Assembly (NCBI RefSeq): GCF_003815775.1
Contig: NZ_CP033926.1
Span: 2,976,001 to 3,040,000, forward strand
Direction of reading: 5' to 3'
Source: Chryseobacterium joostei
GTDB lineage: Bacteria; Bacteroidota; Bacteroidia; Flavobacteriales; Weeksellaceae
DNA length: 64,000 nt
Positions 9,172-60,415 of the stretch are shown here, piece by piece. Made by a program: the position numbers and the translations under genes. The notes below the pieces were generated by a model. That model saw only the letters and a list, made by a program, of their open reading frames with translations. It was not told the DNA's origin and searched no databases. Positions within the stretch are counted from its first letter, which is position 1, and the number at the start of each line of letters is the position of its first letter.

Positions 9172-11616
9172 TTAAAAGTTAAAATTAAGTCTTCCAAAGA
9201 AATAGCTTCCCAACGTTCCCATTTGTACCGGCGCATATTTGAATACTCCATAATATGAATTTTTATAGACCTGAAGATCCGGAAAGACATCCAGTACATT
9301 ATTAGCCCCTATCGTAAAGTTGATGTTTTTTGTGATATCATAACCCACACTAACGTCAGTAACTACCTTTGGCGAAAATTCCTGAACTTCTCCAAAAGGG
9401 AAGCCATCTCTTATTACTTTACCAAAGTAGGTATTTCTCACGAGAAAATTAAATTTTCCTATTCCGTAGTTCAGGCCTAATGATGCTTTGGTCTTTGGGG
9501 AAAGGGTTTCAATAATATTAATCTGATCCGGCCCGAAATATTGATCTCTTGGGGTATTTATATTTTCTGGAAAATGGAAGTCTGTAATCTTTGTTTCTGT
9601 ATAATTTCCGGCAAGGTTTACATTCAAATTTCCTCCACCTAATTTCCAATCATAGGAAACCACAACATCTACCCCTTTGGTTTCCGTGTCTATGGCATTA
9701 GCAAAAAATCGTCCGCTTTCTACCTCATTTCCTTTCCCTACCACATTAGGATCTGATAGTCTTGGATCTGTAATATTTCCGGTAATAACAATTCTGTCTT
9801 TTACTTTAATGATATATCCATCTACTGTAATGAACAATCCTTTTGCCGGTTTTAACGTAAATCCGGCACTTCCGTTAACCGAAGTTTCCTGTTTTAAACG
9901 GTCAAAATTAAGAACCTCAGCCGCCTTACTGTCATTATTAAAAATTCCCTTGGTAACAATCTTCAAACCGGTAGTAGAAATATCTGCATAGGAATTGTTA
10001 AAATACTGCTGTTGAAGTGATGGTGCTCTAAACCCCGTTCCCACAGCAGCTCTTACAGCGTAATTTTTTACAAACTCATACCTTATTGCCAGTTTTCCGT
10101 TCAGGCTATTTCCAAAGTCTGAATAGTTTTCAAATCTTCCAGCAACATCTATATTTAGTTTTTTATCTAAATCATATGAAAAATCAGCATACACCGCCGT
10201 TGAATGCCTGTCCTTTTTCAACACATTACGTGGAGAAAAACCAATAAAGGATTGTGCCCCGCCTACTCCGCTCACTGTAGATCCGTCCACAGCAATGTTT
10301 CCGTTGACATCATATTGGGCATAAGAAGCTTCATCTCCAGCCTTAATCTGGTATTGTTCAAATCTGAATTCTCCACCAAATGCTATATTGAAATTCTTTA
10401 TATTTTTGGAAACATCCAAGTTAACTGTATTTTGCAGGAAACTATGCGCTCCAGCATAAAAACGAGTGGGTGATTTTGCTCCTAAGGAAGCATTATTGGT
10501 ATTACTAATGTTATAGTTGAATGTGTTGCTGCCCAATGTATTACTTAGATCAATCAACCAATTATTCACATTATATTTTGCTCCTACAGCATAGGAAATA
10601 TCATAGATCTGAGAGCCTAAGACAGCCTGAAAACCATTAGGATAGATTGATGAAACTACATTCGAGGTTTCGCTTGGAAGTCTTCTGAAACCATATCCAT
10701 TTCCTTCTTTGATACTAAAACCACCAAATGAATACAGTTTAAATTGTTCATTCAAAGGATATTCTGAATTGAAAAATAACTGTCCTTGCCTGATTTGCGC
10801 ATCCCCAACCTGAAAATTGAAATCATCTCGTGTCAGTCCTCTTTCTTTGATGATATCATCATCATTTTTTCTTGCAATATCCGGATTATCAGCAAATTCA
10901 TAAGCAAAATTATTTCCGAAAATATCAAGGTCATGGTTTTGAGTTCTTGTTGTTTTTCCTCTGTGGCTTAGCTGTAGTGAGAGATTCACAAAACCTTCAT
11001 TTTTTCCAAGAGATGCACCATAGTTGACACCAGCCTGATAGGTATCTCCATCATTTCTTCCACTTAATCCATAGGTTAAGCTTGCTGAAGCTCCGGTATT
11101 TTTTTTAAGGATGATATTGATAACTCCTGCAATGGCATCTGAACCATATTGTGCCGCAGCACCATCCCTCAAAACTTCAATTTTTTCGATGGCAATGATA
11201 GGAATAGTACTTAGGTCCGTTCCCACAGAACCATTCCCAACTGTATTCTGATAGTTCACCAAAGAGGTTGTATGCCTTCTTTTCCCGTTAAGCAATACCA
11301 ATACCTGATCCGGACCCATTCCCCTTAAGGTTACAGGATCAATATGTTCTGTACCATCGGAAGCAGATTGCCTTACAGAATTAAAGGACGGAATAACATA
11401 ATTCAGGAGATCCTGAGCAGTCATTTGCGGTGATGATTTTTGAATTTTATCAATATTAATAACATCTACAGGAACCGGAGTATCCAGTTTTGTCCTTTTA
11501 GCACTTCGGTTTCCTACGATAATAATATCCTCAATTTGTTTTCCTTTTTCTTCCTGCTCCTGGGCTGCAGTTAAAATTGTCCCAAGCAGTAATACAGCTA
11601 TACTTAGTTTTTTCAT
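9172..11616 (-). CDS. TonB-dependent outer membrane receptor (SAM-riboswitch regulated)
   Basis: 814 residues: signal peptide (MKKLSIAVLLLG to about residue 20), a plug domain (about 35-165, with the VEVLRDGAAAQYGSDAIAG segment) and a large C-terminal beta-barrel ending in Phe (FGRLNFNF), as usual for outer membrane barrels. I chose ATG 11616 rather than the in-frame TTG at 11631, since the latter gives a poorer signal peptide. It lacks the N-terminal carboxypeptidase-like domain of SusC proteins and has no SusD partner, so it is a classical TBDT. A SAM-I riboswitch lies upstream and an amino acid permease follows, suggesting import of methionine or a precursor. Confidence 0.92.
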   Translation of the reverse strand: MKKLSIAVLLLGTILTAAQEQEEKGKQIEDIIIVGNRSAKRTKLDTPVPVDVINIDKIQKSSPQMTAQDLLNYVIPSFNSVRQSASDGTEHIDPVTLRGMGPDQVLVLLNGKRRHTTSLVNYQNTVGNGSVGTDLSTIPIIAIEKIEVLRDGAAAQYGSDAIAGVINIILKKNTGASASLTYGLSGRNDGDTYQAGVNYGASLGKNEGFVNLSLQLSHRGKTTRTQNHDLDIFGNNFAYEFADNPDIARKNDDDIIKERGLTRDDFNFQVGDAQIRQGQLFFNSEYPLNEQFKLYSFGGFSIKEGNGYGFRRLPSETSNVVSSIYPNGFQAVLGSQIYDISYAVGAKYNVNNWLIDLSNTLGSNTFNYNISNTNNASLGAKSPTRFYAGAHSFLQNTVNLDVSKNIKNFNIAFGGEFRFEQYQIKAGDEASYAQYDVNGNIAVDGSTVSGVGGAQSFIGFSPRNVLKKDRHSTAVYADFSYDLDKKLNIDVAGRFENYSDFGNSLNGKLAIRYEFVKNYAVRAAVGTGFRAPSLQQQYFNNSYADISTTGLKIVTKGIFNNDSKAAEVLNFDRLKQETSVNGSAGFTLKPAKGLFITVDGYIIKVKDRIVITGNITDPRLSDPNVVGKGNEVESGRFFANAIDTETKGVDVVVSYDWKLGGGNLNVNLAGNYTETKITDFHFPENINTPRDQYFGPDQINIIETLSPKTKASLGLNYGIGKFNFLVRNTYFGKVIRDGFPFGEVQEFSPKVVTDVSVGYDITKNINFTIGANNVLDVFPDLQVYKNSYYGVFKYAPVQMGTLGSYFFGRLNFNF

Positions 11617-11710
11617 CTTTATTCTTGCCAATTAATACTATTTCTCCACAGAACATGCTGCAGATACACAAGACTTCAAGAAATGGAATTCATATAAGAA
11701 TATTGACTTC

Positions 11711-11813
11711 ACTTATCTCCCCCATCGGGTTGGAATTAGCACCTTTACACTTCTGGAATTGTGTCGGTTGCTAAGGTTTCTTTGGGCCAAATCCCTCCAC
11801 CTTTCTTGATAAA
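11711..11813 (-). promoter_or_regulatory. SAM-I (S-box) riboswitch aptamer
   Basis: The minus strand carries the S-box landmarks in order: P1 5' side TTATC with AAGAAAGGTGGAGGGA, then GGCCC, GAAACCTTAGCAACC, the AAGGTGCTAATTCC block, and the closing P1 arm GATAA. About 95 nt separate it from the receptor ATG. I see no T-tract terminator in that interval, so control may be at translation initiation. Binding of SAM should switch off the receptor-permease operon. Confidence 0.93.
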
Positions 11814-11820
11814 TCTACTG

Positions 11821-38389: not shown

Positions 38390-39592
38390 TTAAACAACCA
38401 CTTCAATCTGGTTTCTCAATAGGTCTTCAAACTCGTCTCTTTTACGAATCAGGAGAGCTTTTCCATCAAGGAATAAAACTTCTGCAGGCTTTAATCTTGA
38501 ATTGAAGTTTGAACTCATTTCAAAACCGTAAGCTCCGGCATTATGGAATGCTAGAATATCTCCTTCTCTTACTTCATTTAATTTTCTGTCCCATGCAAAC
38601 GTATCTGTTTCGCAGATATTTCCCACTACGGTATAAATTCTTTCAGCTCCTTTTGGATTAGATAAATTCTCAATCATATGGTAAGAATCATAAAACATAG
38701 GACGAATCAAGTGATTAAATCCGGAATTCACTCCCACGAAAACAGTGGCTGTAGTTTGCTTGATTACATTAGCTTTCACTAATAAATATCCGCTTTTTCC
38801 AACCAGGAATTTCCCCGGCTCGAACCATAGTTCGAATTTCTTCCCTGTAGTTTTTGAAAACTCAGAAATTACTTTTTCTACTTTTTTGCCTAATGTTCTA
38901 ACATCAGTTTCTTCTTCACTATCCTGATAAGGAATTTTGAAGCCGCTTCCCATATCCAGATACTTCAGGTTAGGGAAATGCTCAGAAAGCTCCAGCATAA
39001 TCTCCAAAGCCTGTAGAAATACATCCGGATCCTTGATTTCACTTCCCGTATGCATGTGAAGTCCTTCAACATTCAGGTTTGTACTTTTCATCACTCTTTC
39101 AATGTGACGAACCTGGTGAATAGAAATCCCGAACTTACTGTCGATATGCCCCGTTGAAATTTTATAGTTACCTCCGGCAAAAATATGCGGGTTGATTCTT
39201 ACTAAGATTGGATAAGTGTTTCCGTATTTATTCCCAAATTGCTCAAGAATAGAAATGTTATCAATGTTTATATGAACTCCGAAAGTCATTGCTTCCTCTA
39301 TTTCAGCTAAGTCAACACAATTTGGAGTAAATAATATTTTTTCTTTCGAAAATCCCGCCTTTAATCCAAGCTTAACTTCGTTAATAGATACACAATCCAA
39401 AGAAGCACCCAGGTTCTTGACATACTTAAGGATATTGATGTTTGTCAAAGCCTTCGCTGCATAGAAGAACTTAGTATGTTTTAAAAAAGAAGATGTGAGT
39501 TTTTCGTATTGAACTTTGATGGACTCAGCATCATAAACATACACTGGTGTGCCAAACTCATTGGCAATCTTTAATAATTCTTTTGAATTCAT
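38390..39592 (-). CDS. lysA: Diaminopimelate decarboxylase
   Basis: Last step of lysine synthesis: meso-diaminopimelate to L-lysine and CO2, PLP dependent. 400 residues. The PLP-binding Lys is in FFYAAKALTN (about 46), followed by the HMHTGSEI and EPGKFLVG segments and the C-terminal NICETDTFAW motif with the Cys of the dimer active site. It is preceded by a 23-aa peptide ORF with six Lys codons and an intrinsic terminator ending about 15 nt before its ATG, indicating attenuation by lysyl-tRNA supply. Confidence 0.96.
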   Translation of the reverse strand: MNSKELLKIANEFGTPVYVYDAESIKVQYEKLTSSFLKHTKFFYAAKALTNINILKYVKNLGASLDCVSINEVKLGLKAGFSKEKILFTPNCVDLAEIEEAMTFGVHINIDNISILEQFGNKYGNTYPILVRINPHIFAGGNYKISTGHIDSKFGISIHQVRHIERVMKSTNLNVEGLHMHTGSEIKDPDVFLQALEIMLELSEHFPNLKYLDMGSGFKIPYQDSEEETDVRTLGKKVEKVISEFSKTTGKKFELWFEPGKFLVGKSGYLLVKANVIKQTTATVFVGVNSGFNHLIRPMFYDSYHMIENLSNPKGAERIYTVVGNICETDTFAWDRKLNEVREGDILAFHNAGAYGFEMSSNFNSRLKPAEVLFLDGKALLIRKRDEFEDLLRNQIEVVV

Positions 39593-39607: not shown

Positions 39608-39643
39608 TAAAAAAAGGCAGATCTTTCGAAAAAAGAGCCTGCC
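39608..39643 (-). terminator. Attenuator terminator upstream of lysA
   Basis: Two stacked stems, GGCAG/CTGCC (39616-39620 with 39639-39643) and TCTTT/AAAGA (39622-39626 with 39632-39636), are followed by seven T on the minus strand. It lies between the Lys-rich leader peptide and the lysA start, where a terminator makes sense only as a regulatory switch. Confidence 0.75.
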
Positions 39644-39675
39644 ACATTGATTATTTTTTATGCAAGACAAGTCTT

Positions 39676-39747
39676 TTAAATATTCCAAACCTTAGAGAAC
39701 TTTACAGTTCCCTTTTTTCCAGTTTTATTTTGTTTAAAATTTTGCAT
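39676..39747 (-). CDS. Lys-rich leader peptide of lysA
   Basis: A 23-codon ORF beginning MQNFKQNKTGKKG and ending KVWNI, with six Lys codons (3 AAA, 3 AAG). Its ATG is 19 nt after a TATTTTTG -7 box. A small hairpin (AAGAC-TTGT-GTCTT, imperfect) follows the stop and an intrinsic terminator follows 32 nt later, just before lysA. Ribosome stalling at Lys codons when lysyl-tRNA is scarce would be expected to prevent the terminator from forming. This is a classical attenuation layout read directly from sequence; the mechanism is inferred. No lysine riboswitch motif was seen. Confidence 0.72.
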   Translation of the reverse strand: MQNFKQNKTGKKGTVKFSKVWNI

Positions 39748-39766
39748 TGCTTCTATTTAATTTTTG

Positions 39767-39774
39767 CAAAAATA
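39767..39774 (-). promoter_or_regulatory. -7 element of the lysA leader promoter
   Basis: TATTTTTG on the minus strand, with a TTG 17 nt upstream (39794-39792). It positions the transcript start shortly before the leader peptide ATG. Confidence 0.55.
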
Positions 39775-39852: not shown

Positions 39853-41076
39853 TTATTTTGGCAACGGTAAGGTCTCAAAATCTCCACGAAGAAGTGCTAA
39901 TTGCAGTTCATTGTTCAAATCAACGGAAGATAAAGGGAGGTCAATTTTCAGTTTAGCCAGCTTACTTAACGTCTGAATCTGCGTAAATAAATCATAAAAA
40001 CCAAAGGACATAACCTTTCCGTTTTCAATAATTAAAAATAATTTTTCACCTAATTTTCTTCCTGTACCCAACCAGAGTTCATTTCTTTTTCTAAACTCTA
40101 TTTTTTGCTTTAATACAGCTACATCATTATATTCTTCTATAGCACCGATAAACTGAACCGCTTTTGTTCCCTGAGTAAATGATCTGAATTTGAGAATAGG
40201 CTTTTCCGTTTTATTAAGTATATTTTTTTCAACAACATATTTATTGTTTCTGAAATACAGCCCAAAAGGTAAAACTTCTTTTTTCTTAATGTTCTTGGAG
40301 TTAAGAATCAGTTTTGCAATAATATCTGTTCCGGTAAGCTCAAAATTAATCTGTTCTACACTTTTCTGGATCTGTTCCCATTTTTTTGATTTGGAATTAA
40401 AAACCTTTTTTGAAAACTTATTGATATCCTGCGCATAATCAGAAAAGATAATTCTTCCTGACTCGTCCTGAAAATAGACAAAACCTTTATCATTAGGAAG
40501 ATCCTGTGTAAGTTCCTTAATCTTATTGATATAGGTCTTGGCATTGGTTTCATCATGTTGCTTCTGAATAATTTCGTTTTCAGTATCCTTTGATATCAAA
40601 AGCTTGAACAGCTCCAAGGTTGCCCTGGCATCCCCATCAGCTCGGTGATGGTTAGTCAATGGAATTCCTAGTGACTTCACAAGTTTACCCAATGAGTAGC
40701 TTACTTCATCCGGTATCAATTTTTTCGCCAATGGAATTGTATCTAAAGTATTGATTTTAAAATCATAACCTAGCCGATTGAACGACTGACGAAGCATCCT
40801 GTAATCAAAATCAATATTATGTCCTACAAGTGTTGTATTTTCTGTGATTTCGATTACTCTTTTTGCTATTTCGTGAAACTTTGGAGCCGTTTTTACCATT
40901 TTAGGGGTAATGTTGGTTAGTTTCTGTACAAAGGGAGTAATATCGCCCTCAGGATTGACAAGGGATATAAACTGGTCAGTAATTTTCTGACCATCGTATC
41001 TGTAGATGGCAATATCTATAATGCATTCATGTCTATAACCTGCACCATTACTTTCTATATCTATAATCGAATACAT
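39853..41076 (-). CDS. DnaQ-like exonuclease fused to a degenerate GIY-YIG region
   Basis: 407 residues. The N-terminal ~170 are a DEDDh 3'-5' exonuclease: DIES (Asp7/Glu9), HNIDFD and HHRADGDA hold the expected acidic and His residues. The second part (from about 195, LPNDKGFVYFQDESGRIIFS) lines up with the UvrC/Cho GIY-YIG nuclease core LPxxPGVYxFxDxxGxxIYVGKA, but the second motif reads FSDYA where active enzymes have YVGKA, so that site looks inactive. Exonuclease-Cho fusions are known; a dead nuclease half suggests a binding role. Confidence 0.85.
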   Translation of the reverse strand: MYSIIDIESNGAGYRHECIIDIAIYRYDGQKITDQFISLVNPEGDITPFVQKLTNITPKMVKTAPKFHEIAKRVIEITENTTLVGHNIDFDYRMLRQSFNRLGYDFKINTLDTIPLAKKLIPDEVSYSLGKLVKSLGIPLTNHHRADGDARATLELFKLLISKDTENEIIQKQHDETNAKTYINKIKELTQDLPNDKGFVYFQDESGRIIFSDYAQDINKFSKKVFNSKSKKWEQIQKSVEQINFELTGTDIIAKLILNSKNIKKKEVLPFGLYFRNNKYVVEKNILNKTEKPILKFRSFTQGTKAVQFIGAIEEYNDVAVLKQKIEFRKRNELWLGTGRKLGEKLFLIIENGKVMSFGFYDLFTQIQTLSKLAKLKIDLPLSSVDLNNELQLALLRGDFETLPLPK

Positions 41077-49899: not shown

Positions 49900-50367
49900 G
49901 CTTGGAAAATTGAACCATTAAACAAAACAAAATTTTCAGAAAATGAAAAAGTAATAATCTTTGGTGTATTGGGAATTCAACCTGTTATTTTCGGTACATT
50001 TTATTGTTTTTTTCAAAAAATTAACCAAACTGATGAAAGCAACGAATTGAGCAAGCAAATACTTAAATTAATTAAAAATTTATTTTATAGAGAGTCAACT
50101 GAAAGTTATCCTTACTAATCGCAGGAAACAAATGGGGGCAAAAAATATTTTTTGCTTGATGAAGACGCTCCAATCACATACAACAACGCCAAAAGAAATG
50201 AAGAACTGGGAACAAATACCGATTTCCAAAATGAAGAAATCAATGGTTTAGTAATGGTTCGAACTGGTTCAAAGTCTTATCGACTAAATTCACAAATTCG
50301 TACTGAAACCTCATTTTTTAGCATAGAAAATTATCAAAAAGGCGGAATCCGAAAAGCCAAAGAGTAG
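49900..50367 (+). pseudogene. Unidentified decayed frames upstream of the large gene
   Basis: Protein-like stretches in shifting frames, e.g. SENEKVIIFGVLGIQPVIF and, from 50152, an open run of 71 codons containing NEELGTNTDFQNEEINGLVM. The last run ends 21 nt before the large gene's ATG. It has no recognisable homology; it may be the continuation of the decayed paralogue or another broken gene. Confidence 0.35.
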
Positions 50368-50388
50368 GAAAAAATAAAAAACAGTAGA

Positions 50389-60271: not shown

Positions 60272-60415
60272 AGATATTTTGTTTTAATTTGTTGCCTACT
60301 CTATATGCTTTTCGGCTTACGCAAGTAATTTGTTATTTGATAGTTAACAAATATATACATTTTTCACCGATGAATGAAAATTATAAAAAAAATCCTATAT
60401 ATCTATTGAAAACAA

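What the first reader, a model, noticed from the sequence alone, without database searches (positions are those of the whole stretch)
39608..39774. Lysine-rich leader peptide with terminator before lysA: an attenuator
Promoter, 23-aa peptide with six Lys codons, small hairpin, intrinsic terminator and lysA follow each other within about 180 bp. The amino acid enriched in the peptide is the product of the controlled enzyme. Lysine control of lysA by ribosome-mediated attenuation, rather than by an L-box riboswitch, is to my knowledge not a standard description for this group; I cannot check the literature here.
Basis: partly seen in the sequence, partly recalled or inferred. Interest (0 to 1): 0.8.

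Follow-up and report, generated by a model that had tools for sequence, protein, structure and literature searches.

The report
Lysine-codon attenuator in front of lysA
In Chryseobacterium and related bacteria a short lysine-rich peptide gene and a set of competing RNA hairpins sit in front of the last gene for making lysine, and most likely let that gene be read mainly when lysine runs short.

Summary
A 23-codon ORF (39747-39676, minus strand; 6 Lys codons), an internal hairpin and an intrinsic terminator lie between a TAnnTTTG element and lysA. The Lys count alone is not beyond chance in such A-rich DNA (P 0.12); the case rests on comparison. The ORF stands before lysA in 67 of 81 loci compared and, diverged, in seven more genera of the family. 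In 18 leaders chosen to span these genera, two Lys codons flanking the hairpin are invariant and 5-9 Lys are kept. New here is a 1-2-3-4 switch: RNA from the stop codon on (segment 2) can pair with the terminator's 5' arm (antiterminator) or with the ORF's start; both pairings recur in relatives with other bases. In a fold model a ribosome on the stop codon abolishes the antiterminator in 12 of 12 leaders; ribosomes on Lys codons leave it free in the window's leader, less evenly elsewhere. No L-box or T-box matched. The same genome has His and Thr leader peptides. Best reading: ribosome-mediated, lysine-codon transcription attenuation of lysA. My literature searches showed no such lysine case. 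No expression data were available.

The parts
39767..39774 (-). promoter element TATTTTTG (TAnnTTTG, Bacteroidota -7 type; consensus recalled)
   Evidence: TAnnTTTG ends 16-20 nt before the leader ATG in 66 of 67 leader loci; no conserved -33 TTG found
39736..39750 (-). segment 1, GCAAUGCAAAAUUUU, over the leader start codon; pairs with segment 2
   Evidence: MFE and RNAalifold; duplex against shuffles p 0.0045 in the window, p 0.001 in L236 (g125) with other bases, but not significant in g4, L147 and some other leaders
39676..39747 (-). leader ORF, 23 aa, MQNFKQNKTGKKGTVKFSKVWNI, 6 Lys
39695..39712 (-). hairpin P1 inside the ORF, GGGAACU/AGUUCUC, flanked by the Lys12 and Lys19 codons (pause hairpin by analogy only)
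   Evidence: other genera
39666..39677 (-). segment 2, AAAAGACUUGUC, begins in the stop codon; antiterminator 5' arm
39631..39643 (-). segment 3, GGCAGGCUCUUUU, 5' arm of terminator and 3' arm of antiterminator
39609..39643 (-). intrinsic terminator, stem 39643-39616 then 7 T (39615-39609)
   Evidence: -11.7 kcal/mol
38390..39592 (-). lysA, diaminopimelate decarboxylase
39853..41076 (-). upstream gene, DnaQ/DEDD-type exonuclease domain protein (neighbour, not part of the switch)

Best explanation
Ribosome-mediated transcription attenuator for lysA that reads lysine supply through Lys codons. RNA polymerase starts a few bases after the TATTTTTG element (inferred) and makes the leader. With enough Lys-tRNA the ribosome runs to the stop codon and covers segment 2, so segment 3 pairs with segment 4, the terminator forms and lysA is off. 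When Lys-tRNA is short the ribosome stalls on a Lys codon; segment 2 is left free, pairs with segment 3 as the RNA emerges, the terminator is pre-empted and lysA is read. Segment 1 can also pair with segment 2 when no ribosome is in the way; in the model this holds strongly in some relatives but only weakly in the window. Anatomy and alternative pairings are shown by sequence comparison; stalling, pausing and the lysine response are inferred.
For: Leader ORF with intact frame and stop in 67 of 81 loci. Diverged Lys-rich leaders before lysA, 8 genera in all. Two Lys codons invariant in the 18 aligned leaders. Segment 2:3: 94.8% of cells paired against 48-66% when slid, 31 sequences; over 67 leaders C at column 81 is always with G at 116 (21 of 21), G81 with A in 32 and G in 14, and C117T occurs only with C81 (4 of 21 against 0 of 46), with at least 10 changes of column 81 on the lysA tree. 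Duplexes against shuffles, one leader per genus or type: Fisher 2e-7 (2:3) and 5e-9 (1:2) for 8 chosen leaders; with the least favourable tested leader of each, 5e-5 and 2e-6. Fold model of the window leader: nascent antiterminator 0.86-0.87 with the ribosome on any of the six Lys codons, 0.06 on the stop. Same genome has His- and Thr-rich leader peptides before hisG and a thrA-type gene. No L-box or T-box.
Against: No transcript or expression data. Lys codons are scattered, not in a run, and K8 and K16 can be lost. V20-W21-N22 are invariant in the 67 loci beyond what Lys reading needs. In the window model a ribosome-free nascent RNA also forms the antiterminator (0.86), so a default-off state without a ribosome is not supported there; full-length RNA favours the terminator in most states, so antitermination must be kinetic. 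In several relatives only some Lys codons free the antiterminator (L191, L216, L236, L147; L192 only K7), and in L230 none does (at most 0.09). Column shuffles give no covariation signal for the simple 2:3 pairing (control a). Single 2:3 duplex tests are not significant in L144, L192, L230, L243, L250 (0.0505) and L235; L219 fails the standard test (p 0.98). 14 of 80 named loci and 16 genera of the set read show no leader.
Confidence: 0.78

Rival explanations
1. Nascent-chain arrest: the leader peptide itself (core KG...FSK, end FSKVWN) stalls the ribosome in response to lysine or another signal, rather than by empty Lys codons.
For: Peptide nearly invariant in the 67 loci while third codon positions vary most (heterozygosity 0.057/0.059/0.133 for positions 1/2/3); several replacements conservative (K/R, V/I).
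Against: In the 18 leaders across genera only K-G and a second K are fixed (F and S 16 of 18 each); G13 and F17-S18 codons lie in the arms of hairpin P1, so RNA pairing can explain them; VWN was seen only in the g1/g3/G513 type.
Confidence: 0.1
2. The ORF senses general translation (as some antibiotic-responsive leaders do), not lysine in particular.
For: A ribosome halted well before the stop would free segment 2 whatever the codon.
Against: Lys-rich leaders stand before lysA in 8 genera, and the His- and Thr-rich leaders in the same genome match their genes.
Confidence: 0.06
3. A plain terminator of the upstream exonuclease gene plus a chance or free-standing small ORF; lysA has its own promoter.
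For: An exonuclease gene lies upstream on the same strand; six Lys is not significant alone.
Against: 16 nt separate the T run and the lysA ATG, with no TAnnTTTG there; ORF, stop and alternative pairings conserved. The leaderless loci carry TAnnTTTG 34-44 nt before lysA in 14 of 14.
Confidence: 0.03
4. A metabolite-binding riboswitch or protein-bound leader works the switch; the ORF is secondary.
For: Structured leader (z -3.0).
Against: No Rfam family at gathering score on the leader and only hits far below gathering scores at E up to 10; reading frame conserved through indels.
Confidence: 0.03

Closest known systems
Ribosome-mediated leader-peptide attenuators (his, thr, trp, phe type; general anatomy recalled)
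   Same: Short ORF rich in codons for the product, alternative 1:2, 2:3 and 3:4 pairings, terminator just before the biosynthetic gene
   Different: Lysine codons, scattered around a hairpin rather than in a run; lysA; a Chryseobacterium-type flavobacterium
L-box lysine riboswitch (RF00168, accession recalled)
   Same: Lysine control of lysine genes at the leader RNA
   Different: No match here; PMC1262725 (passages read) names L-box as the RNA control for lysine
Leader-peptide candidates in Flavobacterium psychrophilum (PMC9723704, section 19 read)
   Same: Leader-peptide attenuation proposed before amino-acid operons in a flavobacterium
   Different: lysA and lysine do not occur in its main text; supplements not seen
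T-box leaders
   Same: Sense amino-acid supply, terminator/antiterminator (recalled)
   Different: No Rfam match; a reading frame is conserved here

Membership tests
Ribosome-mediated transcription attenuator | Short translated leader ORF | tested here: met
   Frame and stop kept 67 of 67, variation highest at third positions; comparative only, no ribosome data
Ribosome-mediated transcription attenuator | Control codons for the end product of the gene | tested here: met
   4 of 6 Lys codons 67 of 67; two Lys invariant in 18 chosen leaders, 5-9 Lys each. K8 and K16 not fully conserved; Lys count alone not significant in the window
Ribosome-mediated transcription attenuator | Intrinsic terminator between leader ORF and gene | tested here: met
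   found by script in 17 of 18 leaders (missed in L064, where the alignment shows the stem)
Ribosome-mediated transcription attenuator | Antiterminator exclusive with terminator | tested here: met
   weak on their own in g4, g117 and some g2 and g3 leaders
Ribosome-mediated transcription attenuator | Ribosome position decides the fold | tested here: inconclusive
   Stop-codon ribosome abolishes the nascent antiterminator in 12 of 12 leaders; Lys-codon ribosomes free it at every Lys codon in only some; ribosome-free window RNA also forms it; kinetics not modelled
Ribosome-mediated transcription attenuator | Expression responds to the amino acid | not testable with these tools
   No expression data
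L-box riboswitch | Match to the Rfam covariance model | tested here: not met
T-box | Match to the Rfam covariance model | tested here: not met

The most novel reading that the evidence does not exclude
The first lysine-specific leader-peptide attenuator, in which the peptide end FSKVWN also acts as a nascent-chain arrest sequence, so that the switch reads both Lys codons and the peptide.
Probability: 0.1. Interest if true: 0.75.

Novelty: new member of a known kind. Interest (0 to 1): 0.5.

Why it matters
RNA control of lysine genes is usually told as riboswitch territory (L-box). A lysine-codon attenuator would add an amino acid to the list served by leader peptides and give a well-bounded case in flavobacteria, where leader-peptide attenuation is suspected but, as far as I saw, little tested. 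Eight genera with diverged leaders, and relatives without any, are natural variants for testing how control codons, hairpin and pairing evolve.

Tried and rejected
L-box, T-box or other Rfam family: none at gathering score over the leader; at E up to 10 only hits far below gathering, the lowest E being L20_leader, 19.7 bits against 58.7. Significance of the Lys count in the window alone: rejected as evidence. Peptide-level selection as proof of an arrest peptide: not upheld once diverged genera were seen. Covariation by column shuffling for the simple 2:3 pairing: no signal (control a); the change at column 81 pairs with a neighbouring base instead. Leaders before two dapA-type genes, a 412-aa aspartokinase-type gene and a pheA-type (PF00800) gene of the same genome: none seen by eye among ATG ORFs of 8-45 aa in 260 nt upstream. 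Leaders before lysA outside the family: none seen by eye in 18 fetched loci L149-L166, out of 59 such genomes with lysA.

Rows left out of the Fisher figures: 10 of the 18 leaders, namely L064 (script found no terminator), L219, and eight from already represented genera or types. The representatives were picked after the single p values were known, so repeats the test with the least favourable tested leader of each genus or type (5e-5 for 2:3, 2e-6 for 1:2; six types only: 2e-4 and 7e-5; with L219 added: 2e-4 and 1e-6). L219 has its segment 2 inside the ORF and failed the standard test (p 0.98); a hand-chosen segment gave p 0.002, not in any Fisher figure.

Full report
What is there. On the minus strand, between an exonuclease-like gene (41076-39853) and lysA (39592-38390; NCBIfam lysA equivalog), lies a leader of about 155 nt. 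It holds a TATTTTTG element (39774-39767), a 23-codon ORF (39747-39676, MQNFKQNKTGKKGTVKFSKVWNI), a hairpin inside the ORF, and a terminator with seven T ending at 39609. One of 200 shuffles folds at least as well. The Lys count alone is weak: random ORFs of that composition reach six Lys with P 0.12.

Who carries it. The window is inferred to be Chryseobacterium from named lysA loci at 99% identity. That call kept the best 80 of 584 loci (78 titled Chryseobacterium, 2 Weeksellaceae MAGs). Of the 80, 66 carry the 23-codon leader (67 of 81 with the window), starting 151-156 nt before lysA; 14 do not, and in 14 of 14 a TAnnTTTG element stands 34-44 nt before lysA instead. In leader loci TAnnTTTG ends 16-20 nt before the leader ATG in 66 of 67. 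A covariance model of 31 leaders hits 34 of 395 genomes of the order (2 of 108 genera) and 148 of 296 of the family (4 of 33 genera), one hit in each. Reading lysA upstream regions directly finds versions that the model misses: of 43 regions read, 11 have a Lys-rich leader, from genera g2 (5 of 8 loci), g4, g9 (1 of 2), g112, g117 and g125; with g1 and g3 that makes 8 genera. Sixteen other genera in that set show none. My ORF filter there (ATG, 12-45 aa, at least 4 Lys) was supplemented by eye for GTG and TTG starts (L235, L236), so counts may be low.

What is conserved. In the 67 loci K5, K11, K12, K19 are 67 of 67; K8 is 59; K16 is 55 with Arg in 12. In 18 leaders that I chose to span 8 genera the shared core is K-G-x-x-x-F-S-K: the first K, the G and the last K are 18 of 18, F and S 16 of 18 each. 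The G and FS codons form the arms of hairpin P1, so RNA pairing can account for them; the two Lys codons flank the hairpin. Leaders hold 5-9 Lys. One g3 leader outside the 18 has T for S (L145). The pattern fits Lys-codon reading better than a fixed peptide, though VWN in the main type stays unexplained.

The switch. Segment 2 (39677-39666) begins in the stop codon. It can pair with the 5' arm of the terminator (39643-39631) or with segment 1 over the leader start (39750-39736). In 31 leaders the 2:3 pairing forms in 94.8% of cells against 48-66% when slid, but with no both-sided changes and no gain over column shuffles. The informative change is re-registered: over 67 leaders C at column 81 is always with G at 116 (21 of 21), G81 with A (32) or G (14), and C117T occurs only with C81 (4 of 21 against 0 of 46); column 81 changed at least 10 times on the lysA tree. 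Across genera, duplex energies against shuffles give for 8 representatives Fisher 2e-7 (2:3) and 5e-9 (1:2), for six types 1e-5 and 7e-7. Because the representatives were picked after seeing single p values, I repeated this with the least favourable leader of each: 5e-5 and 2e-6. Single leaders differ: 2:3 is not significant in L144, L192, L230, L243, L250 and L235, and 1:2 is not in L147, L230, L243, L250, L235 and L219. In L236 (g125) the 1:2 pairing is made of other bases (-15.8 kcal/mol, p 0.001). For eight g2-like leaders the terminator and P1 together show 92.2% of cells paired and two pairs, both in the terminator, with changes on both sides; 23 of 500 shuffles reach the covariation score and 144 of 500 the count of such pairs.

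Model of the ribosome. I masked a footprint (my assumption: 18 nt before to 13 nt after the first base of the A-site codon) in 12 leaders. With the ribosome on the stop codon the nascent antiterminator is at most 0.06 in 12 of 12. In the window it is 0.86-0.87 for each of six Lys codons, and also 0.86 with no ribosome, where 1:2 pairing is weak. L050, L146, L148 and L233 behave like the window at their Lys codons (0.62 or more). L219 is at 0.49 before K28 and L147 high before K20, both 0 at the last. L191, L216 and L236 free it at some Lys codons only, L192 at K7 only, and L230 at none. In complete RNA the terminator wins in most states, so the decision must be made during transcription.

Setting. 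The same genome has MKPIFLALHHYYHHLC before hisG, followed by a terminator (stem and T run, by eye), and before a 783-aa aspartokinase ORF of thrA type (type inferred from length) a leader with six Thr in a row, followed by an inverted repeat without a clear T run after it. I saw no leader at two dapA-type genes, a 412-aa aspartokinase-type gene and a pheA-type gene.

Literature. PMC9723704 (section 19 read) reports strong clues for leader-peptide attenuation before amino-acid operons in F. psychrophilum; lysA and lysine do not occur in its main text. PMC7366714 (passages) mentions leader-peptide-like sORFs in Bacteroides thetaiotaomicron. PMC1262725 (passages) lists lysine under L-box and histidine, threonine and phenylalanine under attenuators. 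[quoted passage not shown] PMC10117765 (passages) proposes a leader with Thr and Lys codons before an aspartate dehydrogenase gene in Sinorhizobium. PMC1273637 (passages) was not relevant. Searches showed no lysine leader-peptide attenuator at lysA among the titles and abstracts listed; two listings were capped (20 of 87, 15 of 124), and the library is open-access only.

Verdict. It is a new member of a known kind with, as far as I could search, a new amino-acid specificity.

Noticed in passing
window 11710-11815 (-): SAM-I riboswitch (78.9 bits) upstream of a TonB-receptor-like ORF at 9172-11631 (-) (named by eye).
   Followed up: partly
window 50339-50370 (+) and 60293-60325 (-): Two DUF805b RNA motifs.
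   Followed up: no
L251 and L255 (same genome, outside the window): His leader MKPIFLALHHYYHHLC with terminator before hisG, and a Thr-run leader with an inverted repeat before a thrA-type gene.
   Followed up: partly
L191 and L216 (genus g112): Two species of one genus carry different leader types before lysA, which hints at replacement or transfer of the lysA region.
   Followed up: no
L104: Chryseobacterium soli keeps the exonuclease gene next to lysA but lacks the leader.
   Followed up: no
L241 (genus g122): Terminator-like repeat before lysA with no recognisable leader ORF (by eye).
   Followed up: no
L219: Leader ORF runs through segment 2 (the stop codon lies further on), yet a hand-chosen segment pairs well with the terminator arm.
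   Followed up: partly
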